Assembly (NCBI GenBank): GCA_029961745.1
Contig: CP124680.1
Location: 558,001-622,000, forward strand
Source: Nocardioides sp. L-11A
GTDB lineage: Bacteria; Actinomycetota; Actinomycetes; Propionibacteriales; Nocardioidaceae
Reading direction: 5' to 3'
Length of the DNA: 64,000 nucleotides
Of this stretch, positions 39,962 to 56,573 are shown one piece after another. The position numbers were made by a program, and so were the translations under genes. Under the pieces are notes generated by a model. The model ran no database searches. It saw only the letters and a program-made list of their open reading frames with translations, and had not been told where the DNA came from. The first letter of the stretch is position 1; each line of letters begins with the position of its first letter.

Positions 39962-42520
39962 GTGAGCAGACGGAGTTGGGGCCACCGAGCGTGGCGGATC
40001 TGGGTGGTGGGCCTGGCCCTCGCCCTGGGTGCGGTGGCGATGCCGTCGATGACGCCTTCCGCGTCAGCCGGCGTCGTGCCGGGAGACACGCTGTGGGTCG
40101 GCCCGAAGATGCAGGGCTACCCGGGCACGGGTATCCACGGCATCTTCAAGGAGACCCCTCCCGACATCACCAACCTGGGGACGCCGGACTACTGGGGCTA
40201 CTGCATCGAGCAGCCCGTCTCGGCCAAGTCCTACCGGAACGGCGAGGTCGTCGATCCCTCGGAGTATCTCGGCAGCAACCACTTCAACGATCCCGCCATC
40301 CAGGAGAAGGTCCGGTGGGTGCTGGCGCACAGCTATCCGTACCTGAGCCTGGCGGAGTTCGCGGCCGCCTCCGGTGTCGCGAACATCTCGGTCGACGACG
40401 CGATCGAGGCCGCCCAGTACGCCATCTGGCGCTACACCGACCTCACCTTCGACGCCGCCTGGGACTGGGAGACTCCGGACTCGGAGGCCGCCTACTGGTA
40501 TCTCGTCAACGGCGCCAACGCCAGCACCGGCACGACCACCTTCCCGTCCGTCACCGCGTCCGTCACCGCCCCGGCCGGCGCGCAGCAGGCGGGCACCCTG
40601 GTCGGCCCGTTCACGGTGCACACCAACCAGCCGACGGTCAGCCTCACCGTCGCTCCCGACGTCGCCGTGACCGACGCGTCGGGCACGCCGGTCAACGACG
40701 CGGCCGTCACCGACGGCCAGCAGATCTACCTCGACCTGCGGGGTTCGACGACCGCCGGCGCCGCCACGGTCACCGTGACCGCCCAGGGCGCCGGCGGCAG
40801 CGGGAACATCATCTCGGTGCCCAACACGGCCGGCGGTACGCCGACGGCCGGCGACCACGCCCAGACGCTGATCCTGATCGAGCCGAGCACCGCCACCACC
40901 ACCGGATCGGCAACCGTCACCTGGACCGCCGCCCAGGCTCCGTCGATCGGGACCACGCTGGTCGACAAGGCCGACGGCGACCACACCATCCCCGCCGGGG
41001 GTGGCACGGTCGTGGACACCATCGCCTACCAGGGCCTGACCCCCGGCGCGACGTACACCGTCACGGGAGAGCTGATGAGGAAGTCGGACGGCTTCCCGAC
41101 CGGGATCACCGGCACCAGGACCTTCACCCCGACGTCGGCCGAGGGCAGCGTCGAGGTCGAGTTCACGGTTCCGTCGGGCTATGCCGGTGAGTCGCTGGTG
41201 GCCTTCGAAGAGCTGTGGGTGACGGTCGACGGCGAGGACATGTTCCTCGTCGATCACAAGGACATCGATGACGACGCGCAGACGGTGGCGGTCGCCAAGG
41301 GTGCGCCGACCGTCAACACCCAGGCCTCCGGGGCCACCGCCACGGTCGGCACGGCCCTGCACGACGTCGTGACCATCACCGGGTTCGTCCCGGGTGGCAA
41401 CGCCACGGGCACCGCGGTCCTCTACGGCCCGGTCTCCGCGGTCGACGACACCGTCTGCACCCCGGCGAACGTGGCCGGCACGGTCACCTTCACCCCTCAG
41501 AACGGGACGCTCTCGACCCCGACCGTCACTGTCACCCAGCCGGGTCTCTACACCTGGCAGGTCACCGTGAGCGCGGACAACCGCAATGACAAGGCCACCC
41601 ACGCCTGCGGTCTGGCGGCCGAGACGACCAAGGTCGTGCAGCCGGACACCGGCGCGGGCGGTCAGTCGACGGTCTCGCTGACGACGGAGACCTCACACGA
41701 CCAGGCCAAGCCCGGCGTCCACCTCTTCGACAAGGTCACCATCACCGGCTTCGTGCCAGGACACGGCGCCACCGGCTCGGCCACCCTGTACGGACCGTTC
41801 GCGTCGCGCGACGAGATCACCTGCACCGCGGCCACGGCTGTCGGGACGGTCAGCTTCACGCCCGGCAACGGACTCGTCCAGACGCCGACGGTCCAGGTGA
41901 ACCGGACGGGCTACTACACCTGGGTCGCGTCGACGACGGCCGACAGCCGCAACACGGCCGCGTCGCACGCCTGCGGCCTGGAGTCGGAGACGACCCTGGT
42001 GCGCAAGCCGGCCTACCCGGCGCCCGTGGTCAGCACGGGCTTCAGCGCCGCCGGAGCGGATGTCGCCGGACGCCGTGGCATCGAGCGGATCCGCATCCCG
42101 TCGCTGGGCGTCGACGCCCGCACGTCGCCGGTCGGCATCAAGCGCGGCACGATGCAGGTGCCCGGCAATGTCGCCCGCACCGGCCGGCTCCGGCAGTCCG
42201 CCGCCGTCGGTGACCTGATCGGTACGACGGTCATCGCCGGCCACGTCTCCGACCGCCACGACCGGCCGGGTGCGTTCTGGAAGCTCGCCAAGGCCCGCAA
42301 GGGCAAGGTCGTCACGGTGCGCCAGGGCGGCATGAAGGTGCGCTACCGGGTCACCTCGGTCGAGAGGTTCTCGCGGGCCTCGACGCTGCCCGACCGGTTC
42401 TTCTCGACGACCGGTGAGCACCAGCTCGTGCTGATCAGCTGCGCCGGAAAGGTGACGACGCCGGGCGGTGGGTTCCACTACCGCCAGAACGTCGTGGTCA
42501 CCGCGGTCCCGCTCCGCTGA
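39962..42520 (+). CDS. thioester/VaFE adhesin fused to a sortase domain
   Basis: This 852-residue secreted protein has, in order: a signal peptide (to about residue 36); a TQXA thioester domain with Cys81 (GYCIEQ) and Gln152 (AAQYAIW) able to form an internal thioester; a linker domain; a VaFE/T-Q ester-type domain (TTLVDKADGDH to LVAFEELWV); and two similar domains of about 105 residues with two cysteines each. It ends in a complete sortase domain with His761 (IAGHVSD), Cys827 (LISCAG) and Arg841 (HYRQN). Adhesins normally end in a sorting signal and are attached by a separate sortase. The GTG at 39962 follows AAGGGGACAG. A palindrome lies 165 bp upstream. Confidence 0.88.
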   Translation: MSRRSWGHRAWRIWVVGLALALGAVAMPSMTPSASAGVVPGDTLWVGPKMQGYPGTGIHGIFKETPPDITNLGTPDYWGYCIEQPVSAKSYRNGEVVDPSEYLGSNHFNDPAIQEKVRWVLAHSYPYLSLAEFAAASGVANISVDDAIEAAQYAIWRYTDLTFDAAWDWETPDSEAAYWYLVNGANASTGTTTFPSVTASVTAPAGAQQAGTLVGPFTVHTNQPTVSLTVAPDVAVTDASGTPVNDAAVTDGQQIYLDLRGSTTAGAATVTVTAQGAGGSGNIISVPNTAGGTPTAGDHAQTLILIEPSTATTTGSATVTWTAAQAPSIGTTLVDKADGDHTIPAGGGTVVDTIAYQGLTPGATYTVTGELMRKSDGFPTGITGTRTFTPTSAEGSVEVEFTVPSGYAGESLVAFEELWVTVDGEDMFLVDHKDIDDDAQTVAVAKGAPTVNTQASGATATVGTALHDVVTITGFVPGGNATGTAVLYGPVSAVDDTVCTPANVAGTVTFTPQNGTLSTPTVTVTQPGLYTWQVTVSADNRNDKATHACGLAAETTKVVQPDTGAGGQSTVSLTTETSHDQAKPGVHLFDKVTITGFVPGHGATGSATLYGPFASRDEITCTAATAVGTVSFTPGNGLVQTPTVQVNRTGYYTWVASTTADSRNTAASHACGLESETTLVRKPAYPAPVVSTGFSAAGADVAGRRGIERIRIPSLGVDARTSPVGIKRGTMQVPGNVARTGRLRQSAAVGDLIGTTVIAGHVSDRHDRPGAFWKLAKARKGKVVTVRQGGMKVRYRVTSVERFSRASTLPDRFFSTTGEHQLVLISCAGKVTTPGGGFHYRQNVVVTAVPLR

Positions 42521-42628
42521 GGTCCCGCGAGCAGGTCCCGGCGGCGGTGGTTGCGTTCTCGACCACCGTCGCCGGGCCCCCTGTCCGGGTGCCACGGGAT
42601 CGGGGCCGCCGTCGCGTGCCCGAGCGGG

Positions 42629-44971
42629 TCAGGACCGGGGACCGACGACGATCTGGGCGACGTCCTGGTCGGCGACCGACAGCACGGTCGCGCTGGTGGC
42701 CAGCGGGCCGGACGCCGCCCGGACGCCGTCGCGCAGGTGCGGGTGGGCGCCCACCAGGGTCGCGCGCGCTCCGGTGGGCCCGGGGAAGAGGGTGACGGTC
42801 AGCTCCGTGCCGGACGGCGTACCGGCCACGACGGTGAGCAGCAGACCGCCGAGGTCGGCTGCCACGTCGGCGGGCAGATCGTCGCCGCCCGCCCGCACGA
42901 CCAGGCGTACGCCGTGGTCGTGGGCGTCGCTCAGGGCCTGGGCGAACCAGTGGCCCATGTGCACCAGGTCCGGGTGGAGCAGGGTGAGCTGACGCAGGTA
43001 GGCCTCCTCCACGGCGCACTGCGCGCGCAGCACGGGGTCGCCGGGGTCGGTGGCACCGCGGGCGTTCTCCAGCAGGCCGAGGGAGCGGTTCAGTCCGGCC
43101 GCGCGCCATCGGGCCCGGGTCCGGTCGGCGGCCGCGCGTGCCGCCAGCTCGGTCCGCGCGGCCCAGGCGGCGCGCTGGTCGGCGGCGGCGCGGGCGCCGA
43201 TCGCGCCGATCGCGTGCTGGAACCGCCGCCACGCGGCGACCAGGCCCAGGGCCGCCGCGCCCGCCATCAGCACGATCGTCTGGGCCGAGGTGGAGGAGCG
43301 CCCGACGGCGACGGCGACGGCGAGCACCACGACGGCGTACCCGACGCCGGCCCAGACGACGGTCGTCGGTCGGGGGCCCAACTCGGCGAGGATGACGAGG
43401 AGACCGGTGGCGCCGACGGCCTGCCACAGCACCGGATCGTCGCGGCCGTAGTCGACGGCGGCGGCGGAGAGCACGAAGGCGGCGGCTGCCGCCACGGCGA
43501 TCAGGACCACGCTTCCGAGCGGGAGGGTGCGCCGGTTCCGCGTGGTCCACCAGGCCAGGGCGGCGCCGAGGGCGGCGACGGTCGCCATGAGGTACTCCGT
43601 GGTGGGCTCACCGGGGTGGTTGCCCACGGCGAGGACGAAGCCGACAGCCGCCACCCCGGCGCCGTACAGAAGGCAGGCGCGTCGGCGCAGGACCCGGACC
43701 ACGCGGGCGAGATCGCCCCGGCCGCCGTGTGGGCGCCGCTCAGGGGCGGAGGGCCGGCGCACGGTGAGGGTCACCCGGGTGCCGAGGCCCGGGGCGGTGT
43801 CGAGCGCGACATCGATGTCGGCCTGCGCGGCCCGCTCGACGACCGAGGTCGCCAGGCCGCCGGACAGTCCGGCACCGCTCTCGAAGCCGACCCCGTCGTC
43901 GGACACCGTGACCACGAGGTCGCCGTTCCGCATCTCGGCATGCACCCGGACCTCGTCGACGCCGGCGTGCTTCGCGGCGTTCTGGACCAGCTCGGTCGTC
44001 GCGCGCCGCAGCGCCCGCAGCCGCTGGGGGGCGAGCCGGCCCTCGAGGTCGGCGAGGGTGTCGTCATCCAGGCCGAGGTGGCGAACCCGGACCCGCGCGT
44101 CGTACGACGCCGCTCGGATCCCGCCCTCGTCGGCCACCGGCTCGGCGCCGGCCTGCAGCGCCGCGACGGTCGCGATGTCGCGGGCACAGCGTTGCCGGAC
44201 CGCCTCGGGATCGCGGACCGCGCCGCCCCCGCTGGCGATGGCGGCGAGGGTGTTGATCACGGTGTCGTGGAGGACCCGGGCGTCCTCGGCCGCGGCCTGG
44301 CTGGCGGCCGCGTGGGCGACGACAGCGGCCTGGTCGCGGTGTGCCGCCGCCCCCTCCTCGTCGGCCCGGGCCGCGAACTCGAAGAGATAGGACTGCCCGA
44401 TCCGGGTGGCCAGCACGATCGACCACTGGGTCACGAACACGGCCACCGGCAGCGTCGGGGGCAGGTCGGGCCGCAGGAGCAGCATCGCCGTCGGCACCGA
44501 CACCGAGGCGAGCGCGGGCAGCACCAGGGCGGTGCGGCCACGCAGGACGAATGTCGGCGCGCCCCCGCCGAGATTCATCATCCAGCAGGACGCGAACAGC
44601 AGCGGGTCGTCCATGGAGTCGGCCGCGGCCCAGTCGGCCACGAAGAGCAGGTAGACCGCGACGACCGGGACCCAGGCCGGCAGCCGTCCCGCGCGCGCGA
44701 CCAGGGTCGCCGCCAACGCGACCGCGTGGGCGGCGAGGAGTGGCAGCAGCGGCGGCAGCGGGCCCGGCGACGCGACGACGGCGAGGAGCATGACGACCTG
44801 CCAGCCGGCGGTCGCCGTCAGGAGAGCGCGGACCAGCGCGTCCGTCAGCGTGCGGGTCGCCCAGCCCTCCGTCGCGGGGACGAAGGGGGCGGCACGGCCG
44901 ATCAGGTCACGGGCCACGTCGACGGCGCGCTCCCGTCCCGGGTTCCCGCCGGGCACTCGGACGGTCTGCAC
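42629..44971 (-). CDS. large two-module sensor histidine kinase
   Basis: This 780-residue kinase is a third member of the large family. It has membrane segments (about 45-195), an H-box RVLHDTVINTLAAIASGG (His235), a HATPase domain with N-box ELVQNAAKHAG and DDGVGFESG, a second membrane region (about 440-580), and a C-terminal module with DPGDPVLRAQCAVEEAYLRQ, LTLLHPDLVHMGHWF and HDHGVRLVVR. The GTG at 44971 follows agggtga. It is divergent from the response regulator gene at 45092, its likely partner. Confidence 0.86.
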   Translation of the reverse strand: MQTVRVPGGNPGRERAVDVARDLIGRAAPFVPATEGWATRTLTDALVRALLTATAGWQVVMLLAVVASPGPLPPLLPLLAAHAVALAATLVARAGRLPAWVPVVAVYLLFVADWAAADSMDDPLLFASCWMMNLGGGAPTFVLRGRTALVLPALASVSVPTAMLLLRPDLPPTLPVAVFVTQWSIVLATRIGQSYLFEFAARADEEGAAAHRDQAAVVAHAAASQAAAEDARVLHDTVINTLAAIASGGGAVRDPEAVRQRCARDIATVAALQAGAEPVADEGGIRAASYDARVRVRHLGLDDDTLADLEGRLAPQRLRALRRATTELVQNAAKHAGVDEVRVHAEMRNGDLVVTVSDDGVGFESGAGLSGGLATSVVERAAQADIDVALDTAPGLGTRVTLTVRRPSAPERRPHGGRGDLARVVRVLRRRACLLYGAGVAAVGFVLAVGNHPGEPTTEYLMATVAALGAALAWWTTRNRRTLPLGSVVLIAVAAAAAFVLSAAAVDYGRDDPVLWQAVGATGLLVILAELGPRPTTVVWAGVGYAVVVLAVAVAVGRSSTSAQTIVLMAGAAALGLVAAWRRFQHAIGAIGARAAADQRAAWAARTELAARAAADRTRARWRAAGLNRSLGLLENARGATDPGDPVLRAQCAVEEAYLRQLTLLHPDLVHMGHWFAQALSDAHDHGVRLVVRAGGDDLPADVAADLGGLLLTVVAGTPSGTELTVTLFPGPTGARATLVGAHPHLRDGVRAASGPLATSATVLSVADQDVAQIVVGPRS

Positions 44972-45002
44972 CGGATCACCCTGCCGTACGCCGCGTGCGG
45001 TC

Positions 45003-45058
45003 GTGGCGGAAGTCGCCACTTTCGCCCCGGAGCGCACCGCCGCCGGCGCTCCGGGGCG
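45003..45058. promoter_or_regulatory. two inverted repeats between kinase and regulator genes
   Basis: GTGGCG/CGCCAC (45003-45008, 45014-45019) and a perfect 12-bp repeat CGCCCCGGAGCG/CGCTCCGGGGCG (45023-45034, 45047-45058) lie in the 120-bp divergent region. They may be operators. They do not match the CCCCCG palindromes found elsewhere in the locus. Confidence 0.45.
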
Positions 45059-45091
45059 GACGAGTTCGACTCACCCGCACACAACCGACCG

Positions 45092-45784
45092 ATGAACTGC
45101 CACAATGCCCCTGTGGCAGCTGGGGAGGCGGCGTCCGAGGTCTGGCGTGTGGCATTGGTGGAGGACCACCTGCTGCAGCGCCGTCGTACCGAGGAGATTC
45201 TCGGCCACCAGTCAGGGCTGGTGGTGGTGGCGAGCTGCAGCACGCTCCCGGAGTTCCTGGCCTGGGTCCAGCGGGCGCCTGCCCACACCCGCCCCCACCT
45301 GCTCGTCCTCGACCTCAGCGTCGACCGGGGGCCGAGTGTCGACCCCGACGTCGTCGGACGACTCGTCGACGCCGGCCTGCGGATCCTCGTGCTCTCGGCG
45401 CTCGCCTCGCCCGGTCTGGTCCGCTCGGTGATCAAGGCCGGGGTGTCCGGCATCGTGGGCAAGCGCGACTCGGAGCAGGACGTCATCGAGGCCGTGTGGA
45501 CGGTGCTCCGGCAGGGCGAGTGGATGACGCCCGACCTGGCGGCCGTCATCGCCGCCGACGCCGACCGCCCCCAGCTCAGCGACCAGGAGGAGCGGGCCCT
45601 GGTGCTCTATGCCTCCGGGCTCACCCTCGGTGCGGTCGCCGAGGCGCTGGGGGTCAAGCCCGAGTCGGCGAAGACCTATATCGGCCGGGTGAAGGGCAAG
45701 TACGCCGCGGCGGGGCGGCCGGTGCGCTCGAAGGTCGAGCTCAGCCGGATCGCGGTGGACGACGGGTACGTCGAGCGCGGGTGA
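45092..45784 (+). CDS. LuxR-family response regulator, twin 1
   Basis: This 230-residue regulator has a receiver domain (ALVEDH, phospho-acceptor Asp74 in LVLDLS, Lys124 in VGKRDSE) and a LuxR-type DNA-binding domain (LSDQEERALVLYASGLTLGA, then KTYIGRVKGKYA). The DNA-binding part is nearly the same as in the regulator at 48160, which is 231 residues. The ATG at 45092 gives matching length; a GTG at 45113 is possible. Its divergent neighbour is a large kinase, its probable partner. Confidence 0.88.
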   Translation: MNCHNAPVAAGEAASEVWRVALVEDHLLQRRRTEEILGHQSGLVVVASCSTLPEFLAWVQRAPAHTRPHLLVLDLSVDRGPSVDPDVVGRLVDAGLRILVLSALASPGLVRSVIKAGVSGIVGKRDSEQDVIEAVWTVLRQGEWMTPDLAAVIAADADRPQLSDQEERALVLYASGLTLGAVAEALGVKPESAKTYIGRVKGKYAAAGRPVRSKVELSRIAVDDGYVERG

Positions 45785-45890
45785 CGATGCCCCGGGCCGA
45801 GGGCCGGCGCGGCCGCCGCCGGATGCCCGCCTGACCGCGTCCGTCGACCGGCGGTGCGGCGCGCCTCCTGCGCCTGGTCCACCTACGACG

Positions 45891-45922
45891 AAGGGGCCGC
45901 ACCCCGTCGGGTGCGGCCCCTT
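45891..45922. terminator. bidirectional hairpin terminator
   Basis: A perfect 14-bp stem (AAGGGGCCGCACCC and complement) with loop CGTC lies between the convergent regulator and glycine-rich surface protein genes. Confidence 0.8.
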
Positions 45923-45961
45923 CACCTTCGACATCCTCCCCCCGGGAGATGTCTGTCTGAC

Positions 45962-47803
45962 TCAGCGTCCGGACAGGCTCCGGGCGCCGGTGGCGGGCGT
46001 ACCCGCCAGCTTCTTCTTGGTCTTCTTCACCTTGGGCGTCTTGACCTTGGCCTTCGACGGCAGCGACTGGACCGGGTTGCCGGCGGGGGTGGTGCCGGTG
46101 GCCGTGGCGACGTTGACGACCTTGCCGGCGACCAGGTCACGCTTGTGGACCTTGTAGGTGGCCGTGCAGGTGATCGAGGCGCCCGGCGCGAGGCCGGTGG
46201 CCGCGAGGGCCGGGCACTTCGGGGTCAGGGTGCCCTTGCCGCTGAACTGCTGCTCGGCGATCGAGATGGTCTTCAGCGCGATGTTGCCGGTGTTGGTCAC
46301 CGTGAAGGTGTACTTGATCTTCTGACCGAGCTTGGCGACCTTCTTGGGCTTCGCCTTCTTGACCAGCGCGACGCTGGGTGCCGCCGGCTGCACGGTGGCC
46401 GCCGCGGAGTTGTTGGCCTGGTTGCCGCGGTCGGTGACGCCCACGTTGTTGAGGACGGGGGCGGAGCCGGTGAGGACCTTGCTGTAGACCAGGGTCAGCT
46501 TCTCGCCGTTGTCGAGACCACGGACGGCGTCGTCGCCGACCGGCCGCGAGCAGTCGAGCTCGCCGTCGGCGGGGATCGCCGACCCGACCGCGGTGTCACA
46601 GGTGAACGGCGTGCCGCCGCCGCTGGCCTGCACCGACACCAGGGTGCCGCCGCCGGCCTTGTCGTCGGTGACGGTGACCGTGTCGTCGATGCCCATCAGG
46701 TCGGGACCGTTGTTGGTGATCACCAGGGTGTAGGTCACCGGCGTGCCGGACTCGAACACCTCGGCCGCGGCCGTCTTGGTGACGGACAGGTCGTAGTCGC
46801 ACGGCACCCACTCGATCTCGCCGGTGCCGTCGCGGCTCGGCTCGTCGTCGGCCAGCGCCTCGCCCTCGGCCTGCGGGATGAAGACAGCACCCTGGGCCGC
46901 GTCGAAGAAGCTGGACCCGCCGCCGCCTCCGCCGCCAATGATCAGGCCGTTCGGGCCGTTCACGTCGCCGATGGTGGTGGCACCGCCGCCGCCGCCGTAG
47001 TAGCCGGCACCACCGCCGCCGCCCTGGTCGGCGCCGTTCGGACCGCCGCCGTCGCCACCGTTGCGACCGTCGCCGGGCAGGCCGTTGTTGTCGGCGTCGG
47101 ACGCGTGGACACCGCCCGCGCCGGGTGCGCCGGTGTCGCCGCCGGCGCCGCCGCCGGGTGCGCCGGGCGTCTCGGCGGTGGCGTCGTTGCCGGCCGCGCC
47201 CTCCTGGCCGGCCCAGACGCCCGCACCGTCGATGACGCCGGCGTGACCGCCGCCGCCCGCGTCCGGGTTGTGGCCGCCGCCGGAGCCGCCACCGCCGCCG
47301 GCGAGTGCGACGAGAGTGCCGTTGAGGAGGAAGCTGGTGTAACCGCCGCCACCACCACCGGTGTGGCCGCCCGGCCCGCCGTTGCCGCCCTTGTCGTCAC
47401 CGGCCGCGCCGCCGACGCCGCCGCCGGATCCGCCGTCGCCGATCACGCCGGTGAGCACGTCGGTGGGCGCGACCGGGATCCGGAACTGGACCCGGGCGCC
47501 CTGGCCGCCGCCGATCTGGATCGGGTCGTCCGGGTCCTCGGTCTCCGGGTCGTCGTCGCCGCCGGAGACGGCCGTGCCGCCGTTGGCGCCCTCGAGGGTC
47601 ACCACCGCGGCGCACGAGCCGGGAGCGGCAGCCTCCTCGAAGTCGCCGACCTCGAGGAGGGTCGGCCCCTCGGGCTCGGGGGCGGGGTCGGCGTGCGAGC
47701 TCGGCACGCTGCCGAAGATGCTGATCGTGGCGGTCGCGGTGGCCAGCGCGGCGATGCCGGCGAGCCTCACGCGACGACGGGGGTGCGTAGTCAATGCGGA
47801 CAT
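45962..47803 (-). CDS. glycine-rich surface protein with DUF11 domains
   Basis: This 613-residue secreted protein has a signal peptide (to about residue 38), a short acidic part, and a very glycine-rich region (about 110-300, with GGGGGGYTSFL, GGGGGGSSFF). Two DUF11-like beta domains follow (YDLSVTKTAAAEVFESGTPV and VALVKKAKPKKVAKLGQKIK). The basic C-terminal tail has LAGTPATGARSLSGR. TPATG recalls an LPxTG sorting motif, but the hydrophobic anchor that should follow is missing. The ATG at 47803 puts the signal peptide at the N-terminus. Copy C of the palindrome is 63 bp upstream. Confidence 0.82.
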   Translation of the reverse strand: MSALTTHPRRRVRLAGIAALATATATISIFGSVPSSHADPAPEPEGPTLLEVGDFEEAAAPGSCAAVVTLEGANGGTAVSGGDDDPETEDPDDPIQIGGGQGARVQFRIPVAPTDVLTGVIGDGGSGGGVGGAAGDDKGGNGGPGGHTGGGGGGYTSFLLNGTLVALAGGGGGSGGGHNPDAGGGGHAGVIDGAGVWAGQEGAAGNDATAETPGAPGGGAGGDTGAPGAGGVHASDADNNGLPGDGRNGGDGGGPNGADQGGGGGAGYYGGGGGATTIGDVNGPNGLIIGGGGGGGSSFFDAAQGAVFIPQAEGEALADDEPSRDGTGEIEWVPCDYDLSVTKTAAAEVFESGTPVTYTLVITNNGPDLMGIDDTVTVTDDKAGGGTLVSVQASGGGTPFTCDTAVGSAIPADGELDCSRPVGDDAVRGLDNGEKLTLVYSKVLTGSAPVLNNVGVTDRGNQANNSAAATVQPAAPSVALVKKAKPKKVAKLGQKIKYTFTVTNTGNIALKTISIAEQQFSGKGTLTPKCPALAATGLAPGASITCTATYKVHKRDLVAGKVVNVATATGTTPAGNPVQSLPSKAKVKTPKVKKTKKKLAGTPATGARSLSGR

Positions 47804-47865
47804 GGTCGGCTTTCTATCGGCCTCCCGGCGCCTGGGTCCCCCTCCGAGAGTCAACTCGGCTCAAA

Positions 47866-47885
47866 TGCCCCCCGAACGGGTGACA
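47866..47885. promoter_or_regulatory. surface-locus palindrome, copy C
   Basis: On the minus strand this reads TGTCACCCGTTCGGGGGGCA followed by TTTG. It is 63 bp before the start of the glycine-rich surface protein gene. Confidence 0.6.
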
Positions 47886-47924
47886 GGTGGTGGGCGGCCG
47901 ATACCAGCCGCGGCGAGGGCGGGA

Positions 47925-47951
47925 CCGAGGACGAGGGGCCCTCATCCTCGG
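47925..47951. promoter_or_regulatory. 13-bp inverted repeat in divergent region
   Basis: CCGAGGACGAGGG (47925-47937) and CCCTCATCCTCGG (47939-47951) are complementary with one wobble around a single central base. Its place between two divergent starts favours an operator over a terminator. Confidence 0.45.
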
Positions 47952-48159
47952 GGCGATGGGATTCGGTCGTGTCGGCCACCGGGGTCGAGCACCCGCGGCC
48001 CCGACACCCGGGCGGTCCGACACTCTCGCCCTGGCGCGCCGTCCCGGGTTCCCCCCATCCTTCCACCGGGTCGAGCCCGGGGTCGGCGTCACCGTTGCGC
48101 CCGAGACCTCGGAGGGACGCAGGTGATGGACCGCGGAGAATCAGGAAGGCTCGGAGCCA

Positions 48160-48855: not shown

Positions 48856-49175
48856 CCGAGCCCCTCGCCCGATGAGGCTCGAGCGCCCGGGTCGCCCGGC
48901 CTCCCATGACCCGGCTCTGCCCCCTTTACGGGGGACATTCGTCAACCGGATCTGCCGAAGCGTGGAGTGGGTCTCGATCGCGCCGCTAGCGTCCAGGTCG
49001 ATGGACGGGATCGACGACTCGCGCCCTCCGGCAGTGGGAGAAGCGAGGAACGCGGCGCGACGTGGCGACCGTCGGTGCGCGTCCTGGTTCAGCGCCGCGC
49101 GGCCGTAGCCCCGGTGGCCCCGACGTGACCCGCGCGGCGACCGCGCCCGCAGGCATCAGCTTCCTGGAGGTACGC
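48856..49175. other. 320-bp upstream region of sortase gene
   Basis: This holds palindrome copy D (48918-48937) and no convincing gene. A 78-codon open frame at 48872-49108 has arginine-rich, low-complexity content with no ribosome site. Confidence 0.6.
48918..48937. promoter_or_regulatory. surface-locus palindrome, copy D
   Basis: TGCCCCCTTTACGGGGGACA followed by TTCG. It is 239 bp before the stand-alone sortase gene. Confidence 0.55.
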
Positions 49176-49871
49176 ATGCCCATGCCCCCCCGAACCAGCC
49201 CGACCGCAGGGGGTCGAGCAGGCGCCCGGTCCGCTGCGGCCCGCAGGAACGGCACGACCGGCCTGCGTGCCGTCGCCCACGCAGGCGTCGCTGCGGCGCT
49301 GACCGTCAGCCTCGCCGCCGCGCTGGGCGGGGTCGTCGTCCCCGGCGCGGACGCGACCACCGCCGAGCGGGTGCGCGTCGCCGCGGCCTGCGCCACGCCG
49401 GCCGGCCCCTTCTCGCCGACGACCACCAGCATCCCCGCGATCGGCCGGTCCGTGGGCGTCGTCCGCGTGCGCCGTACCCCCTCGGGTGCGGTCGGCACGC
49501 CGCCGGTCACCAAGCGCGGCAAGTGGCTGATGGGCCTCGACCCGCAGGTCCGGCCGGGCGGCGGGAAGGGCACCGTGATCCTGGCGGCGCACACCTGGCC
49601 CGACAACTCGGCGCTCGGCAATGCGCTGCTCCGCTCGTTCGCCGTGGGTGACCGGCTTCTGCTCGCCAACGGCTCCGCCACTGCCTGTTACCAGGTCACC
49701 AAGCGCAAGAAGTACCGCGCCACCAAGGTCCCCCGTAAGAAGGCATTCCGTTGGTGGGGGCCGGAACAGCTGGTGATCGTGGTGTGCTCGGGCAAGCGGC
49801 TCGGCCCGGGACGCTGGACGCACCGCACGATCTGGTACGCGACGCCCGTCGATGGTGCGGCGACGGGATGA
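49176..49871 (+). CDS. stand-alone sortase, class F-like
   Basis: This 231-residue protein has a signal or anchor segment (about 35-60) and a sortase domain with catalytic His139 (AAHTWPD), Cys204 (IVVCSGK) and Arg217 (WTHRTIW). Short single-domain sortases with this look are common in actinobacteria (class F). Its product would attach surface proteins, but no classical LPxTG protein lies in the window. The ATG at 49176 follows GGAGG with 5-bp spacing; an upstream extension has no signal-like features. Confidence 0.82.
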   Translation: MPMPPRTSPTAGGRAGARSAAARRNGTTGLRAVAHAGVAAALTVSLAAALGGVVVPGADATTAERVRVAAACATPAGPFSPTTTSIPAIGRSVGVVRVRRTPSGAVGTPPVTKRGKWLMGLDPQVRPGGGKGTVILAAHTWPDNSALGNALLRSFAVGDRLLLANGSATACYQVTKRKKYRATKVPRKKAFRWWGPEQLVIVVCSGKRLGPGRWTHRTIWYATPVDGAATG

Positions 49872-49921
49872 GTGGACCACCCCACCACTGAGGGCCGTCG
49901 ACTCGAGCGCGGGTGATGCCG

Positions 49922-49963
49922 CGTCCCCCGATCGGGGGGCAAAACCGCCCCCTGCAGGGGACA
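49922..49963. promoter_or_regulatory. surface-locus palindromes, copies E and F
   Basis: Copy E, CGTCCCCCGATCGGGGGGCA (49922-49941), is followed by a shorter relative, GCCCCCTGCAGGGGACA (49947-49963). They are 104-145 bp before the LuxR gene at 50067. Confidence 0.55.
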
Positions 49964-50066
49964 TCCGGCCACCCCGGGTGCGCCACTGCGCCACGCTGCA
50001 TCGCGACGCACTGTGCGTGCCCCGGTACTCGGCCGGGGACGAGCCCCGGCAAGGAGAGTCCGCCCG

Positions 50067-51647
50067 ATGTCCACGGTCAGCTCCGCCGACACCCTCGGCG
50101 CGTTGGTCGCGGGTGGCCGGCTGGACGAGGCGACCGACGCCTTCGAGGCCGACTGGGTGGAGCTCTGGTACACGACCGAGCCCGAGGTCCTGCGCGCCGT
50201 CCTCGCGGCGCTGCCGGCCGAGACGGTCGCCCGCAACCCGGGCATGCGGTTCGTCGCGGTCGCCAGCGGCCTGACGACGGGGGCCGACGCCTGGGCGCTG
50301 GTCGACGAGGCCATGGCGCAGGTCCGTCGCGGACATCGGCCGGACGAGGAGATCCTGCTCGCCCACCTGCTGTCCGGTCTCCAGCACCGCGCGGCCGGAC
50401 AGGTCCTCCAGGCCCGCCTGGTCCTGGACGGTGCCCGGTCCGCCGCCGCACGGATCGCGGTCGTGCCCGAGGGCGACGTGGACCCGGCCCTGGTCGCCTT
50501 CTCCCGACTGCAGCACGGGCTCACCGCGCTGCTGGGCGGTGACGTGGCCGGCGCCCGCAACCTGCTCCAGACGGCGTACGACGCCGAGGGGCTGCACGGC
50601 TCGCCGGCCGGCCGGGCACATGTCGGCGCCCACCTCGCGCTGGTGTGTGCCGTCGCCGGAGAGCTGCTCACGGCTGAGGAGCACCTCGCGCGGGCCGAGG
50701 AGTTCGCCGCCGCTCCCGGCCCGCTGGTCGCGGCGACCGCCGACGCGTTGCGGCTGACCCGGCTGATCCTGCTCGTCGACCGGCGCGCCCTGCCCGGGGC
50801 CGGGAGACTGGTGCAGGCGCGGCCGCCCGGCTCCTACGGCACCCTGTGGCCGCTCGCGCTCTGGTCGCACGCGCAGCTCCACCTGCTCACGGGCCAGTAC
50901 GAGCGTGGCCTGCGTCTGCTGGCCCGGTCCGTGACGGGCCTGCCCGCCGGGGCCGAAGCCGAGGACGGCATCGCGGGGGAGGTGACGCGGGCGGCGCGCG
51001 CCGACCTCAACCTCGCCGTCGGCAACGTCCGGGAGGCCTGGGTCGCCGTCGAGCCGGGCAGCTCCCGGTCGCCGTGGTCGGCGGTCGCGGAGGCGACGGT
51101 GCTCTACGTCAGCGGCGAGTTCGAGACGGTCCGGTACGCCGCGCGCGTGGCCCGGGCCGCCCACGACCTCACCCTGCGCGAGTCGGTCCGGCTCCGTGGC
51201 CTGGAGGCGGCGGCCTGCCTCGCCGCCGGCGACGAGGACAGTGCGCGGCGGCTCCTGGGGGTAGTCGTCGACCTGGCCCGGCGGCAGGGGTGGCGCTCGT
51301 TCGTCTCGTACCTGCCCCGCCCGCTCGTCGCCTTCGCGCTCCGCGAGGGGCGGCTGCCCGCCGAGCTCGCCGAGGCGCCTCGGGACGCGGTGGGGGTGTG
51401 GGTGCCGGGTCCGGCCCTCTCGGCACCCCTGTCGCCCCGGGAGCGGGAGGTCTTCCGGTTGCTGCTCGAGGGCGTGGCCCGTGCCGAGATCGCCGAGCGG
51501 CTGGGCGTCTCGATCAACACGGTGAAGACCCAGATCCGCAGCCTGTACGCCAAGCTCGGCGTCTCCAGCCGCGGCGAGGTCCTGCAGAAGGTCGCCCTGA
51601 TGCCGCCCGAATGGACCTACGACGTGCCCGACTGGTCGGGGGCCTGA
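50067..51647 (+). CDS. TPR-like LuxR-family regulator without ATPase domain
   Basis: This 526-residue protein has a long alpha-helical repeat region (about 1-440, with many A/L/E/R helices such as AEEHLARAEEFAAAPGPL) that resembles the TPR part of MalT-type regulators. A C-terminal LuxR helix-turn-helix follows (LSPREREVFRLLLEGVARAEIA, INTVKTQIRSLYAKLG). The nucleotide-binding domain of MalT/LAL regulators is absent. AAGGAG lies about 10 bp before the ATG. Palindrome copies E and F lie upstream, and the giant repeat protein gene follows 168 bp after it. Confidence 0.85.
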   Translation: MSTVSSADTLGALVAGGRLDEATDAFEADWVELWYTTEPEVLRAVLAALPAETVARNPGMRFVAVASGLTTGADAWALVDEAMAQVRRGHRPDEEILLAHLLSGLQHRAAGQVLQARLVLDGARSAAARIAVVPEGDVDPALVAFSRLQHGLTALLGGDVAGARNLLQTAYDAEGLHGSPAGRAHVGAHLALVCAVAGELLTAEEHLARAEEFAAAPGPLVAATADALRLTRLILLVDRRALPGAGRLVQARPPGSYGTLWPLALWSHAQLHLLTGQYERGLRLLARSVTGLPAGAEAEDGIAGEVTRAARADLNLAVGNVREAWVAVEPGSSRSPWSAVAEATVLYVSGEFETVRYAARVARAAHDLTLRESVRLRGLEAAACLAAGDEDSARRLLGVVVDLARRQGWRSFVSYLPRPLVAFALREGRLPAELAEAPRDAVGVWVPGPALSAPLSPREREVFRLLLEGVARAEIAERLGVSINTVKTQIRSLYAKLGVSSRGEVLQKVALMPPEWTYDVPDWSGA

Positions 51648-51815
51648 GGTGGCGCGACCAGCCGATCCGTCCTGTCTGGTGGTCCTCGTCCGGGGCTCCG
51701 GGGTGAGTGCATCTCATCCCCGTTCATCTCTTTTAACCGAAGCCGTCCGAGCGCTCCCGCTCGGAAATACGATCGCGCGCATGTCCACGGCATGCCCCGA
51801 CCGAGGAGTGACACG

Positions 51816-54800
51816 TTGAAGAAGCGCTGGTTCGCACAGATGGCGCCACCCGTGCCCAGATACACGACCCGACGTCTGACGGCCCTGGCCGTGGCGGCGT
51901 CGGGGATGGCTGTGCTGGGCGGCACCCAGCTGGCGGCTCCGGCCCTGGCGGCGCCGGGTGACGGCACCATCAAGGTCCGCGTCGTCCAGGACTACAACGG
52001 CGACGGCGGATGGGACGACCCGTTCATCGAGCCGGGCCTGGCCGGCGTGACCGTCCGGGTCACCGACCAGGCCGGGGCGACCCAGGACCTGACGACCGAC
52101 GCCGACGGCCTTGTCGACATCGTGGGCCCGCCGGGCTCCTACCGGATCGTGGCGATCAACCCCGATCCGGCCACCCTCGAACCCGCGCCGGCGCACGAGA
52201 AGACGGGCACGGCCGAGACCCCGGCGAAGAAGTGGCTCTCCCCGAACGAGGAGTTCGTCACCGTCAACGCCAACCAGACCGTGGAGATGACCACGGCCTT
52301 CTGGGACTCCAGCGACTACTGCCAGTCGAACCCCCTCATCGTCACGGCCTGCCAGCCGCCGATGTTCAACAGCGGCGGTGGCCTGGCCGACAACGCCGAC
52401 GGCGACACGCTCGTCACCGCTCCCTACCGCGCAGAGGGTGCGGACCTGGGCAAGACCACGCTGTCCGACAAGGCGGAGACCGGCGCCCTCTACGGCATCG
52501 GCTACCGCAAGCAGGACCGGCGGGTCTTCGCGGGCGCCTTCGCCAAGCGCGGCAGCGCCTACGGACCCGGCGGTGCCGGTGCGATCTACGTGACCGACGC
52601 GAGCGGCGGTCCCGCCACGCTGTGGGGCACGGTGCCGAACGTCGGCACGCGCGCGCACACCAACGACACGCTGCCGGGCGGACGCCTGGACTGGAACTTC
52701 GCGCCCGCCGTCGGCAAGGAGTCGCTCGGCGACCTCGACGTCAGCGAGGACGGCGACGACCTCCAGGTGATCAACCTGTTCGAGCGCAAGCTCTACGTGT
52801 ACGACGCGTCCGCCGCCACGATGGGCGCCCCGACGCACGTCGTGGACCTGTCCGCGAACCCCGGTTGCGCCGCGGCGTCCGACTGGCGCCCGGCCGCCCT
52901 GGGCGAGCGCAAGGGTGTGCTCTACGTCGGCGGCGTCTGCTCGGCCGAGTCCAGCCAGGCTCCCGCCGACATGAAGGCGATCGTGCTGACCTACGACGCC
53001 GACACCTACGCGCCGATCGGTACGGTCATGGACCAGCCGCTCACCGCGCGCCGGCAGGGCAACGGCGGCTCCGGATGCTGGGGCCGGGACAACACGACCT
53101 ACCGGCCGTGGAACGACGAGGGCATCACCTGCGGCAACAAGTCGGGCCAGATCCCGGACCCGCAGGCGTGGCTGACCGACATCGTCGTCGAGAACGACGG
53201 CAGCCTGATCGTGGGCTTCCGCGACCGCACCGGCGACCAGATGCTCGGTGTCAACTCGACCTACTTCGCCGACACCACGGGCACCGGTGGCTCGTCCATC
53301 GGGCTGGTCAACTACAACGTCACCGGTGACATCAACAAGGCCTGCATCGAGCCCGGGGACACCACCTTCACGCTGGACATGAACGGTGCCTGCGGTGTCG
53401 CGCCGGTCGCGACCGGCCAGGTGGCCGGCGAGTACTTCCAGGGCGACGCCACGATCCACGCCGAGGCGGCCTTCGGCGGCATGGCGCTGAGCCGCGGCGA
53501 GCGCGGTGTCGCGACCAACATCATGGACCCGGCGGGCATCTTCACCCAGGGCTACGCCTCGATCTCGCGCGGTACGGGCAACGCCCTGCAGACCGTGGGC
53601 AGCGGCGCCACGGGCGACCCGGACGAGGTCGACACCGGCGGCGGTGGCAACACCGGCAACCGGCTGACCGGGGCCGACGGCTTCGGCAAGGGCCAGGGCA
53701 TGGCCGACATGGAGGTGCTCTGCGACTTCGCGCCGATCCAGATCGGCAACCGGGTCTGGGACGACCAGAACGGCGACGGCATCCAGGACCCGGGCGAGGC
53801 AGGCATCGCCGGTGTCACCGTCAACCTCTACGACGACCAGGGCAACCTCGTCGCCACCAAGGTCACCAACTCGCGCGGTGAGTACTACTTCGACTCCGTC
53901 ACCGACGGTGTCGGGTTCAACACCGACTACGTCATCCGCCTCGACAAGCCGGCCGACTACACGGGCAGCGGCAAGCTGGCGGGCGTCACTCTCAGCGACG
54001 AGGACCAGGGCGCCGGCCCGGAGCAGGACCGCCTCGACTCCGACGGCACGATCGTCGCCAGCTATCCGCAGGCGTCGATCACCACGGGCAACCGCGGCGA
54101 GAACGACCACAGCATCGACTTCGGCTTCAGCCCGGCGTCGGTGTCGGTGGGCAACTACGTGTGGATCGACAGCGACGGCGACGGCATCCAGGACCCAGGC
54201 GAGTCCGGCATCGAGGGCGTCGTGCTGAAGCTGACCGACGCGAACGGTGACCCGGTCGTCGACGTGAACGGCGCCCCGGTCGGACCGGTGACCACGGACG
54301 CGAACGGCCACTACCTGTTCGACAAGCTGCCGGTCCTGCCGGCCGGTGAGCACTACACGGTGACCATCGACCAGACGGCGGCGTCGACGCAGACCGCCCT
54401 CGCGCCGTACAACCCGACCCAGGCCGGTCAGGGCGGCGACCCCGCGCTCGACTCGTCCCTGTGGACGGCGGACTCCACCGAGCTGACCACCGCGGGGGCG
54501 AAGGACCTCACGCTCGACTTCGGGTTCACCCCGAAGCCGGTCGCGGTCGGTGACTTCGTGTGGGTCGACACCGACGGTGACGGCGTCCAGGACCCGGGTG
54601 AGCCCGGCATCCCCGGAGTCACGCTCACGCTGGTGGGCCCCGACGGCAACCCGGTTCCCGGCGTCGGGCCGGTCGTGACGGACGCGAACGGCTTCTACAG
54701 CTTCACCGACCTGCCGGTCCTCACCGATCCGGATGATCGCTACACCGTCCGGATCGACAACAGCCAGCCGGCGCTCGCGCCGTACGTCCCGACCCAGGCC

Positions 54801-56573
54801 GGTCAGGGCGGCGACCCCGCGAAGGACTCGTCGACCGGCAGCGCCACCTCCGGGCCGCTCACGCAGCCCCAGGACCGCGACATGACCCTGGACTTCGGCT
54901 TCGTGCCGGCGAAGGTGTCGGTCGGCGACCTGGTGTGGGCGGACACGGACCGCGACGGTGTCCAGGACGGCGGCGAGCCGGGGATCGAGGGCGTGGTGCT
55001 CACGATCGAGGGTCCGAACGGCGACCCGGTGACCGACATCCATGGCAACGTGGTGGGCCCGGTGACCACCGGACCCGACGGCGGCTACTCGTTCGACGAC
55101 CTGCCGATCCTGCCGGCCGGTCAGCACTACACGGTGAAGATCGACCGGAACCACCCGTCGACGGTCGCGGCACTGGCCGACTACATCCCGACCCAGACCG
55201 GGCAGGGCACGCCGGCCACGGACTCCTCGACCTGGGAGGCGGAGTCGGGCGACCTGACCGGTGACGGCGACCGCGACCCGACGCTCGACTTCGGGTTCGT
55301 GCGGCCGGCGGTCTCGGTCGGCGACCTGGTGTGGGTCGACGCGGACCGCGACGGCGTCCAGGACGCGGGCGAGGCCGGAATCCCCGGTGTCGTGCTGGTC
55401 CTGACCGGACCCGACGGCAACCCGGTGACCGACGTCTACGGCAACCCCGTGGGCCCGGTGACCACCGACGCCAACGGTGCCTACCTGTTCGACGGGCTGC
55501 CGCTGCTTCCCTCCGGCCAGACCTACACGGTCTCGATCGACCGCGACGCGGCGTCGACCAAGACGGCGCTGGCGCCGTACGAGCCGACGCAGGCCGGGGC
55601 CGGCAACGACCGGGGGGCGGACTCCTCGACCTGGAGCGCGGAGTCCAAGAGCCTCTTCGAGGACGGCGACAGCGACCGGAGCCTGGACTTCGGGTTCGTC
55701 CTGCTGCCGGCGGCGGTCACGCTGACGACGGAGACGTCGAAGGCCGTGGCCAAGGTGGGCGTGGCGCTGTCGGACATCGTCACCATCAGCGGCTTCCGCG
55801 CCGGTGGCACCGCCACCGGGTCGGCGACGCTGTACGGACCGTTCAGCAGCCGGGCCGCCGCGACCTGCACGCCCGCGACCGCGGTCGGCACGGTGGCGTT
55901 CACGCCCCAGAACGGCCGGGTGACCACCCCGTCGATCACGGTCAACGCCCCGGGCTACTACACCTGGGTCGCCAGCACCACGGCCGACGACCTCAACAAG
56001 GCCGCCACCCACGCGTGCGGACTCAGCGAGGAGACCACCCTGGTCCACCGTGGCGTCAACCCGGTCCGGGTGATCGACACCGGCTTCGAGGGCAGCGCCG
56101 ACCGCAGCGGCACGGCCCGCACGACGCGGCCGGCCAAGCTCGGGTTCGCCAAGCTCGGCATCCAGGCCAAGGTCAAGCCGATCGGACTGACCGGCAAGAA
56201 GGCCAACGTCCCCGGCAACCGGAACCTCACCGGCTGGCTGCGGACCTCGGCCGAGCTGGGTGACGTCATCGGTACGGCGGTCATCGTCGGTCACGTCTCC
56301 GACAACCACGACCGGCCGGGCGCGTTCTTCGACCTCAAGAAGGCGAAGAAGGGCCAGACCGTCGAGTTGACCGACAAGGCCGGCGTGGTCCGGACGTACC
56401 AGGTCGTCAAGACCAAGCGGTACCTCCGGTCCAAGCTGCTGCCGAAGAAGCTGTTCTCCATGACGAGCAAGTCGCGGGTCCAGCTGGTCACCTGCACCGA
56501 CAAGGTGACCTACGGCAACGGCCGGTTCCACTACCGCAAGAACCTGGTGGTGACGCTGGTCCCCGTGAGCTGA
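51816..56573 (+). CDS. giant SdrD-repeat surface protein fused to a sortase domain
   Basis: This secreted 1585-residue protein has a signal peptide (to about residue 48), a Cna-B-like domain, a large unknown N-terminal domain of about 500 residues, then five SdrD B-like repeats of about 125 residues. Each repeat starts like VSVGNYVWIDSDGDGIQDPG and has calcium-binding-like aspartates. Next come a 105-residue domain with paired cysteines, shared with the protein at 39962, and a complete sortase domain with His1493 (VGHVSD), Cys1560 (VTCTDK) and Arg1574 (HYRKN). The TTG at 51816 follows GAGGAG with good spacing; an ATG at 51792 is also in frame. It lacks an LPxTG tail. Confidence 0.87.
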   Translation: MKKRWFAQMAPPVPRYTTRRLTALAVAASGMAVLGGTQLAAPALAAPGDGTIKVRVVQDYNGDGGWDDPFIEPGLAGVTVRVTDQAGATQDLTTDADGLVDIVGPPGSYRIVAINPDPATLEPAPAHEKTGTAETPAKKWLSPNEEFVTVNANQTVEMTTAFWDSSDYCQSNPLIVTACQPPMFNSGGGLADNADGDTLVTAPYRAEGADLGKTTLSDKAETGALYGIGYRKQDRRVFAGAFAKRGSAYGPGGAGAIYVTDASGGPATLWGTVPNVGTRAHTNDTLPGGRLDWNFAPAVGKESLGDLDVSEDGDDLQVINLFERKLYVYDASAATMGAPTHVVDLSANPGCAAASDWRPAALGERKGVLYVGGVCSAESSQAPADMKAIVLTYDADTYAPIGTVMDQPLTARRQGNGGSGCWGRDNTTYRPWNDEGITCGNKSGQIPDPQAWLTDIVVENDGSLIVGFRDRTGDQMLGVNSTYFADTTGTGGSSIGLVNYNVTGDINKACIEPGDTTFTLDMNGACGVAPVATGQVAGEYFQGDATIHAEAAFGGMALSRGERGVATNIMDPAGIFTQGYASISRGTGNALQTVGSGATGDPDEVDTGGGGNTGNRLTGADGFGKGQGMADMEVLCDFAPIQIGNRVWDDQNGDGIQDPGEAGIAGVTVNLYDDQGNLVATKVTNSRGEYYFDSVTDGVGFNTDYVIRLDKPADYTGSGKLAGVTLSDEDQGAGPEQDRLDSDGTIVASYPQASITTGNRGENDHSIDFGFSPASVSVGNYVWIDSDGDGIQDPGESGIEGVVLKLTDANGDPVVDVNGAPVGPVTTDANGHYLFDKLPVLPAGEHYTVTIDQTAASTQTALAPYNPTQAGQGGDPALDSSLWTADSTELTTAGAKDLTLDFGFTPKPVAVGDFVWVDTDGDGVQDPGEPGIPGVTLTLVGPDGNPVPGVGPVVTDANGFYSFTDLPVLTDPDDRYTVRIDNSQPALAPYVPTQAGQGGDPAKDSSTGSATSGPLTQPQDRDMTLDFGFVPAKVSVGDLVWADTDRDGVQDGGEPGIEGVVLTIEGPNGDPVTDIHGNVVGPVTTGPDGGYSFDDLPILPAGQHYTVKIDRNHPSTVAALADYIPTQTGQGTPATDSSTWEAESGDLTGDGDRDPTLDFGFVRPAVSVGDLVWVDADRDGVQDAGEAGIPGVVLVLTGPDGNPVTDVYGNPVGPVTTDANGAYLFDGLPLLPSGQTYTVSIDRDAASTKTALAPYEPTQAGAGNDRGADSSTWSAESKSLFEDGDSDRSLDFGFVLLPAAVTLTTETSKAVAKVGVALSDIVTISGFRAGGTATGSATLYGPFSSRAAATCTPATAVGTVAFTPQNGRVTTPSITVNAPGYYTWVASTTADDLNKAATHACGLSEETTLVHRGVNPVRVIDTGFEGSADRSGTARTTRPAKLGFAKLGIQAKVKPIGLTGKKANVPGNRNLTGWLRTSAELGDVIGTAVIVGHVSDNHDRPGAFFDLKKAKKGQTVELTDKAGVVRTYQVVKTKRYLRSKLLPKKLFSMTSKSRVQLVTCTDKVTYGNGRFHYRKNLVVTLVPVS

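What the first reader, a model, noticed from the sequence alone, without database searches (positions are those of the whole stretch)
39962..56573. Two surface adhesins carry their own C-terminal sortase domain
The proteins at 39962-42520 and 51816-56573 have adhesin-type domains (thioester and VaFE in one, SdrD repeats in the other) and both end in a full sortase domain with His, Cys and Arg in order. Sortases are normally separate enzymes and adhesins end in an LPxTG signal. A fusion could mean self-attachment, attachment of other proteins to the adhesin, or an enzyme displayed on a stalk. The two N-terminal parts differ but the C-terminal portions are related.
Basis: partly seen in the sequence, partly recalled or inferred. 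Interest (0 to 1): 0.85.

Follow-up and report, generated by a model that had tools for sequence, protein, structure and literature searches.

The report
Adhesins with a built-in anchoring enzyme
A family of bacterial surface proteins from soil actinobacteria carries, in one chain, an adhesive head, a short cutting-and-joining signal and the sortase enzyme that should act on that signal, which suggests that each protein fastens itself to the cell wall.

Summary
Both proteins end in a sortase domain after unrelated adhesin-type heads. They belong to a family: seven such fusions in this Nocardioides-type genome, over 100 relatives, mostly Nocardioides and Pimelobacter. The new point is the junction. 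Right after the last stalk domain the 144 fusions I could measure all have a sorting-signal-like motif, [VI]-x-[T/S/G/A]-G (VVSTGF and VIDTGF here; one has Phe first; Gly invariant). Internal stalk repeats match in 9 of 64. In gene pairs where adhesin and sortase are separate neighbouring genes, the motif stays near the adhesin's C-terminus (8 of 8 examined), not with the sortase. Relatives with the same stalk end in PE[IV]P[ST]G-, LAxTG- or LPxTG-type signals plus a membrane anchor, so the motif sits where a sorting signal sits. His and Cys are kept in 143 of 144, Arg in 42. By hydropathy 0 of 110 fusions have a membrane anchor besides the N-terminus. AlphaFold suggests the motif lies in the active-site groove. 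Best reading: self-sorting adhesins, in which the built-in class F-like sortase cuts its own junction motif and hands the adhesin to the wall. Cleavage and wall attachment are inferred. A lid-like inhibitory role of the motif is the main rival.

The parts
39962..42520 (+). Fusion 1: secreted thioester/VaFE adhesin ending in a sortase domain (852 aa)
40196..40519 (+). Thioester domain (PF08341) of fusion 1
   Evidence: coordinates
40940..41293 (+). Best T-Q ester/VaFE stretch (PF18202) of fusion 1
   Evidence: coordinates
41666..42001 (+). Last stalk (beta-rich, Ig-like by my reading) domain of fusion 1; another copy lies at about 41306-41638
42026..42043 (+). Junction motif VVSTGF (residues 689-694): proposed built-in sorting motif, cut expected between T and G
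42089..42508 (+). Class F-like sortase domain of fusion 1; His761 at 42242-42244, Cys827 at 42440-42442, Arg841 at 42482-42484, Asn843 at 42488-42490
51816..56573 (+). Fusion 2: SdrD-repeat adhesin ending in a sortase domain (1585 aa)
53739..55706 (+). SdrD_B repeat region of fusion 2 (six stretches; start, end by eye)
55710..56045 (+). Stalk domain before the sortase in fusion 2
56070..56087 (+). Junction motif VIDTGF (residues 1419-1424) of fusion 2
56217..56555 (+). Class F-like sortase domain of fusion 2; His1493 at 56292-56294, Cys1560 at 56493-56495, Arg1574 at 56535-56537, Asn1576 at 56541-56543

Best explanation
These are self-sorting adhesins. The protein is exported with its signal peptide. 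The C-terminal class F-like sortase folds, and its Cys attacks the T-G (or S/G/A-G) bond of the motif that joins it to the last stalk domain. This makes an adhesin-enzyme thioester. An amine on the wall precursor then takes over the adhesin, so the adhesin ends up covalently in the cell wall and the used sortase is released. The built-in sortase replaces both the usual separate enzyme and the usual hydrophobic C-terminal tail. Shown here: the fusion architecture, the junction motif and its position, His/Cys conservation, no other membrane anchor by hydropathy, the split gene pairs and repeated switching between fused and split. Predicted: the motif sits in the active-site groove. Inferred: cleavage, wall attachment, single use, and action on its own chain rather than on a neighbour.
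For: Motif after the terminal stalk domain in 144 of 144 fusions with a locatable domain end (143 with [VILA] first; one Phe); Gly 144, V/I 143; shuffled linkers give 46 on average, 69 at most; 44 of 44 after clustering at 60% identity. The four dropped for want of a located end (L074, P0081, P0082, P0106) show RIPTGF, HIATGF, RIPTGF and HVPTGF by eye. Internal repeats of the same proteins: 9 of 64, eight of them at the start of the next repeat. A later search with fusion 2: 26 of 26 fusions, of which 7 were already among the 144 and 3 are close to one. The motif goes with the adhesin when the genes are separate: within 80 residues before the barrel, 94 of 94 fused, 1 of 8 split and 9 of 21 standalone class F-like sortases match the loose pattern (strict [VI]x[TS]G: 62, 0, 3); within 30 residues 79, 0 and 2. 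The 8 split adhesins all have it near their C-terminus. An adhesin-only query gave 18 strong loci; all 18 have a sortase, 10 fused and 8 as next gene. Same stalk with sorting-signal-type ends (motif, membrane segment, basic tail): P0131, P0136, P0159, P0160, P0162, P0163 (PE[IV]P[ST]G or VP[AT]G type), P0158, P0172, P0173 (LAxTG), P0202, P0204 (LPxTG). His and Cys 143 of 144 each. 0 of 110 fusions have a hydrophobic C-terminus or another membrane segment by a hydropathy window; 91 of 110 have a hydrophobic N-terminus. In the alignment of AlphaFold model 1 with SrtE1 5cuw the first aligned residues are V122 (first of VVSTGF) and Ala168; Ala168-Ala170 of 5cuw are described as lying in the active site beside Cys320 and Arg329 (PMC5148588, passages). 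The split label needs at least four changes on supported branches of the tree.
Against: No cleavage, acyl-enzyme or wall linkage has been measured. 40 of 144 fusions have Gly and 9 Ala at the place of the Thr; the strict [VI]x[TS]G form is in 94 of 144. Most lack the Leu-Pro of LPxTG. The classical Arg is missing in 102 of 144. The loose pattern was shaped on the data, and in the 80-residue window 9 of 21 standalone sortases also match it. A few members have weaker forms (P0084 VLTGK, P0107 VVTGR, P0115 IVAGR). Structural placement rests on reported alignment ranges, no coordinates; the second model did not align the motif with 5cuw. The 5cuw peptide itself is said to be perhaps not fully occupied. 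An N-terminal segment in the groove is also what class C lids and the SrtE1 linker do. One fusion (L075) has lost both His and Cys and still has a TTG.
Confidence: 0.62

Rival explanations
1. The junction motif is a lid or pseudo-substrate, as in class C pilus sortases: it blocks the active site until something moves it, and the enzyme, displayed on a stalk, joins other proteins.
For: Best structural matches are lid-bearing class C sortases, and the alignments to them often start in or before the linker (model 1 at 78-80 or 115, model 2 mostly at 143-145 or earlier). In SrtE1 a piece of its own linker lies in the active site (PMC5148588, passages).
Against: In split pairs the motif is near the C-terminus of the adhesin and absent from 7 of 8 sortases. 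Relatives have it before a membrane anchor, as a sorting signal. Two thirds keep a scissile-like [T/S]-G.
Confidence: 0.17
2. The sortase domain works in trans: it links separate proteins, or neighbouring copies of the same adhesin, to one another (pilus-like polymer) or to the fusion.
For: If the motif is a substrate, the split pairs mean that recognition in trans must be possible. Top fold match is a pilus sortase.
Against: One sortase with each adhesin in the 18 loci and seven separate fused copies in one genome, which a trans enzyme would not need. All listed stalk matches in the own genome lie in the fusions, though only 12 of 56 and 4 of 29 first-look candidates were scored there.
Confidence: 0.11
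3. Cleavage happens but water, not the wall, takes over: the enzyme sheds the adhesin into the medium.
For: No membrane anchor other than the N-terminus was seen.
Against: Relatives with the same stalk carry wall-anchoring signals at the same place.
Confidence: 0.05
4. The sortase domain is a non-catalytic binding or structural domain.
For: One fusion, L075, has neither His nor Cys.
Against: His and Cys are each kept in 143 of 144 diverse sequences.
Confidence: 0.05

Closest known systems
Class F sortases (NCBIfam NF033748; PDB entry 5uus is titled SrtF of Corynebacterium diphtheriae)
   Different: Scores 72-73 bits against a cut-off of 166 and against 113-167 bits for three standalone class F proteins tested; fused to an adhesin; no own membrane anchor
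[quoted passage not shown]
   Same: Secreted adhesin with a short motif ending in T/S-G (or G/A-G) right after the last stalk domain
   Different: No hydrophobic segment and basic tail; a sortase domain stands there instead
Class C pilus sortases with a lid (2xwg, 3tbe)
   Different: Lid belongs to the enzyme; here the motif belongs to the adhesin in split pairs
Engineered sortase self-cleavage tags (Mao; BISOP, PMC2901362, abstract read)
   Same: Sortase and its motif in one chain, cutting itself free
   Different: Man-made, sortase at the N-terminal end, used for purification

Membership tests
Class F sortase | Score above NCBIfam NF033748 cut-off (166 bits) | tested here: not met
   72.5 and 72.9 bits; two of three standalone class F proteins tested also fall below it
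Class F sortase | Conserved His and Cys of the sortase site | tested here: met
   present in both; 143 of 144 relatives each
Class F sortase | Asn in place of Arg (described for Actinobacteria in PMC6998099, passage) | tested here: inconclusive
   Asn843 and Asn1576 are there, but an Arg stands two residues before; Asn in 97 of 144, Tyr in 41; which column the paper means was not seen
Class F sortase | Own N-terminal membrane anchor (usual for sortases; recalled) | tested here: not met
   only the adhesin's N-terminal hydrophobic stretch; 0 of 110 fusions have another membrane segment by hydropathy
Sortase superfamily (PF04203) | Pfam gathering score and sortase fold | tested here: met
   53.6 and 46.3 bits against 26.6; Foldseek and VIA matches of the model of the first protein
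LPxTG cell-wall-anchored protein | Pentapeptide motif near the C-terminus | tested here: inconclusive
   [VI]x[T/S/G/A]G at the junction, not LPxTG
LPxTG cell-wall-anchored protein | C-terminal hydrophobic segment and basic tail | tested here: not met
Class C (pilus) sortase | Lid over the active site belonging to the enzyme | tested here: inconclusive
   alignment ranges reach the linker; in split pairs the motif is not in the enzyme
Self-cleaving sortase fusion | Autocatalytic cleavage at the internal motif | not testable with these tools
   needs protein

The most novel reading that the evidence does not exclude
A new way to anchor surface proteins: each adhesin brings a disposable sortase as its own C-terminal domain, which cuts its own junction, hands the adhesin to the wall in a single turnover and falls away. 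The module is portable and has been put behind many unrelated heads, and lineages switch between this one-chain form and a two-gene form.
Probability: 0.58. Interest if true: 0.88.

Novelty: new variant of a known kind. Interest (0 to 1): 0.76.

Why it matters
The papers seen here state that class F sortases have no known physiological role or function (PMC13251363, passages; PMC6998099, passages), and deletion of all four in Actinoplanes missouriensis gave no phenotypic change in that study. The fusions suggest directly which substrate and which motif a class F-like sortase is meant for, so the question can be tested with one recombinant protein. If true, they are a natural self-ligating anchoring module, of use for display and protein ligation, and they explain how adhesins with no recognisable anchor stay on the cell. 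PMC9210967 (passages) found a known anchor or sortase motif in 846 of 1,666 fibrillar-adhesin-like proteins and looked only for listed LPxTG-type motifs within the last 50 residues.

Tried and rejected
Mis-assembly or frameshift fusion: rejected, since the module recurs as one open frame in many genomes.

Motif as part of the sortase fold: rejected as the main reading, because split sortases and most standalone class F-like sortases lack it. The aromatic residue after the Gly lines up roughly with a Tyr in split sortases (by eye), so the aromatic may be structural.

Chance motif: rejected by internal repeats and shuffles. The loose pattern was shaped on the data. The later set is only partly independent: 7 of its 26 were already among the 144 and 3 are close to one.

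PDB sequence searches gave only weak hits. The stalk domain was not tested against folds in its own right; 'Ig-like' is my label. An unusual-class check: a family absent from the VIA list is not excluded by it.

Literature: nothing on natural self-sorting adhesins or adhesin-sortase fusions appeared in the listings; of these, one search showed 25 of 60 papers and 12 of 206. Searches were on lids and on class F catalysis. Only open PMC papers are covered. The J Microbiol 2019 sortase survey (Malik and Kim) is known to me only through a citation and could describe fusions.

Rows dropped: 183 full-length hits were reduced to 148 by removing identical ends, and 144 of these had a locatable end of the last stalk domain (the four dropped are named). 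Of stalk copies, only those matched to within 12 positions of the model's end were counted. In one search only the 18 strongest of the 41 matching genomes were examined for a neighbouring sortase. For hydropathy 110 of the 113 proteins passed a sortase pattern; P0095 and P0109 have no sortase, P0116 has one but failed the pattern. Of the 57 proteins new, sorted 36 as motif without membrane anchor, 9 as motif with anchor, 6 as fused and 6 as none; two of the last (P0167, P0171) are fused by their C-termini, one (P0156) ends inside a domain, and P0166, P0170 and P0174 have a membrane-type end without the motif. The tree has few columns (143) and its bootstrap had not settled, so deep forks are unresolved.

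Full report
What is there. The two reading frames are real and intact. Fusion 1 has a thioester domain, T-Q ester (VaFE) stretches, two copies of a beta-rich stalk domain and a sortase domain. Fusion 2 has SdrD_B repeats, a stalk domain and a sortase domain. The heads differ, but the stalk-plus-sortase modules are 53% identical. The genome (5.68 Mb, one contig) holds 11 sortase-like places in two searches. Reading them out gives seven long fusions with the same C-terminal module, three others that look like ordinary separate sortases, and one sortase-like protein without the catalytic His and Cys. The genome also has ordinary sorting signals: three Gram_pos_anchor matches above the cut-off, one of them beside a separate sortase.

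How widespread. With an alignment of the module as query, 155 of 198 family genomes match at E up to 1e-3. This includes plain sortases; by my count of the listed rows at least 22, own genome included, have the whole module in one frame. In 394 genomes spread over the class, the full-length matches listed were all in the same family. Named records in the genome collection are Nocardioides, Pimelobacter and Janibacter. The protein search gave 113 relatives with heads as different as thioester/VaFE, SdrD, DUF11/DUF7507, VWA and lectin-like domains, and a second one 50, partly the same. The C-terminal module therefore behaves as a portable unit.

The junction motif. Between the last stalk domain and the sortase lies a linker that varies in length and sequence but holds a constant element: VVSTGF and VIDTGF in the window, elsewhere KIETGY, VVNGGF, RIPTGF, VPEVPTGF, VPEIPSGP, SVDTGG. 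In 144 fusions with a locatable end of the last stalk domain the pattern [VIF]-x-[T/S/G/A]-G was found in all. The Gly is invariant, the residue three before it is V 92, I 51, F 1, and the residue before Gly is T 79, G 40, S 16, A 9. The strict form [VI]x[TS]G is in 94. Shuffled linkers gave 46 on average and 69 at most for the loose form, 8 on average and 15 at most for the strict form. After clustering at 60% identity, 44 of 44 keep the loose form and 29 the strict one. Internal stalk repeats in the same proteins match in 9 of 64, eight of these at positions 15-16 where the next repeat begins. A later search with fusion 2 brought 26 fusions, 26 of 26 with the motif; 7 of them were already among the 144 and 3 are close to one of them.

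The split gene pairs. Some relatives have the adhesin and the sortase as two neighbouring genes. Their adhesins mostly stop 3 to about 20 residues after a VPEIPSGP-type motif with no membrane anchor, and the sortase gene follows; one (L135, protein P0136) has a membrane-type tail of 51 residues after the motif. To avoid selecting for the sortase I searched 294 family genomes with a split adhesin alone. Of 41 matching genomes I examined the 18 strongest loci (E below 1e-50). All 18 have a sortase: 10 fused, 8 as the next gene on the same strand. All 18 adhesin parts carry the motif, at the junction or near the end; 16 by pattern and two (EVATGR, DIPTGP) by eye. The split sortases mostly do not carry it: within 80 residues before the barrel the loose pattern is found in 94 of 94 fused, 1 of 8 split and 9 of 21 standalone class F-like sortases, and the strict form in 62, 0 and 3; within 30 residues the loose counts are 79, 0 and 2. 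So the motif belongs to the adhesin. Among 57 new relatives of the split adhesin, 36 end in the motif plus a short tail, 9 in a motif plus membrane segment and basic tail, as in textbook sorting signals, and 8 are fused; the remaining four are a fragment and three without the motif (two sorted by hand). Two more proteins with the same stalk end in LPRTG or LPKTG plus a membrane anchor. On a tree of 123 sortase domains supported branches force at least four changes of the split label, with one fusion (P0105) as supported sister of a split sortase; few columns make the deep order unsure.

The active site. His and Cys are each kept in 143 of 144; the one exception (L075) has lost both. Arg at the position where both window proteins have it occurs in only 42 of 144. 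A paper reports that class F sortases of Actinobacteria have Asn for Arg (PMC6998099, passage); Asn follows two residues on in both window proteins and in 97 of 144. The NCBIfam class F model is the best class-specific match but stays far below its cut-off. Two split sortases and two further fusions score 57-65 bits, three standalone class F proteins 113-167. I call the domain class F-like.

Structure. AlphaFold of the window module of fusion 1 (285 residues, 37 sequences) has pLDDT 91.7 and pTM 0.87. The motif (122-127) begins with a short strand, and the chain after it is poorly defined. The best solved folds are class C and class A sortases. In the alignment with SrtE1 (5cuw) the first aligned residues are V122 and Ala168. 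In that crystal structure Ala168 to Ala170, assigned to the enzyme's own linker, lie in the active site beside Cys320 and Arg329 with Ala168 farthest out (PMC5148588, passages). This suggests that the model puts the motif in the groove in the direction of a substrate. A second model, of a fusion with PEIPSG and a long linker, has pLDDT 84.8 and pTM 0.78. Its alignments with class C sortases mostly start at residues 143-145 or earlier, before the motif (152-157), but its alignment with 5cuw starts after it, at 190. Only ranges were available, no coordinates.

Mechanism. None of 110 fusions has a hydrophobic C-terminus or another membrane segment by a hydropathy window; 91 have a hydrophobic N-terminus. 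The fused sortase therefore stands in place of the hydrophobic tail that holds an ordinary substrate at the membrane. The simplest account is self-sorting: the sortase cuts its own junction motif between T and G, keeps the adhesin as thioester and passes it to the wall. Which wall amine accepts it was not tested. Engineered sortase fusions cut themselves free in the test tube (BISOP, abstract read). The main rival is that the motif is a lid, as in class C sortases (PMC3166054 and PMC5640630, passages). The split pairs speak against it.

What is known. In the listings of my searches of open papers (two of them only partly listed) I saw no description of natural adhesin-sortase fusions acting on themselves. 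A 2026 paper calls class F roles unknown, found no phenotypic change in a quadruple deletion, and set aside two neighbours of class F genes because they lacked known motifs (PMC13251363, passages). The motif found here gives a concrete pattern to look for in such neighbours.

Noticed in passing
window 49062-49871 (+): A separate sortase-like protein of another clade (class F model E 3.6e-8, His/Cys/Arg present by eye) lies between the two fusions.
   Followed up: partly
window 45962-47854 (-): Gly-rich DUF11/DUF7507 protein that ends in ...GTPATGARSLSGR with no membrane anchor by eye and no frameshift seen downstream; it looks like a substrate of the split type.
   Followed up: partly
L032 (G000:C1:1514614-1514925): A sortase-fold protein without catalytic His and Cys and with a C-terminal hydrophobic stretch (by eye).
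   Followed up: no
L033 (G000:C1:1765071-1766683): A separate sortase with one anchor-signal match above the cut-off on one side and one just below it on the other, i.e. an ordinary sortase cluster in the same genome.
   Followed up: no
L031 (G000:C1:872812-878788, -): Two long fusions in tandem with related repeat heads.
   Followed up: no
L075: A fusion whose sortase has lost both His and Cys (Q and K) while a TTG remains in the linker.
   Followed up: partly
window about 45.1-45.8, 48.2-48.9 and 50.0-51.6 kb: By eye, LuxR-type regulator genes stand beside the adhesin genes.
   Followed up: no
column 246 of the module alignment: Another Arg, 22 columns before the catalytic Cys, is kept in 140 of 144 and may take over the role of the missing Arg.
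   Followed up: no
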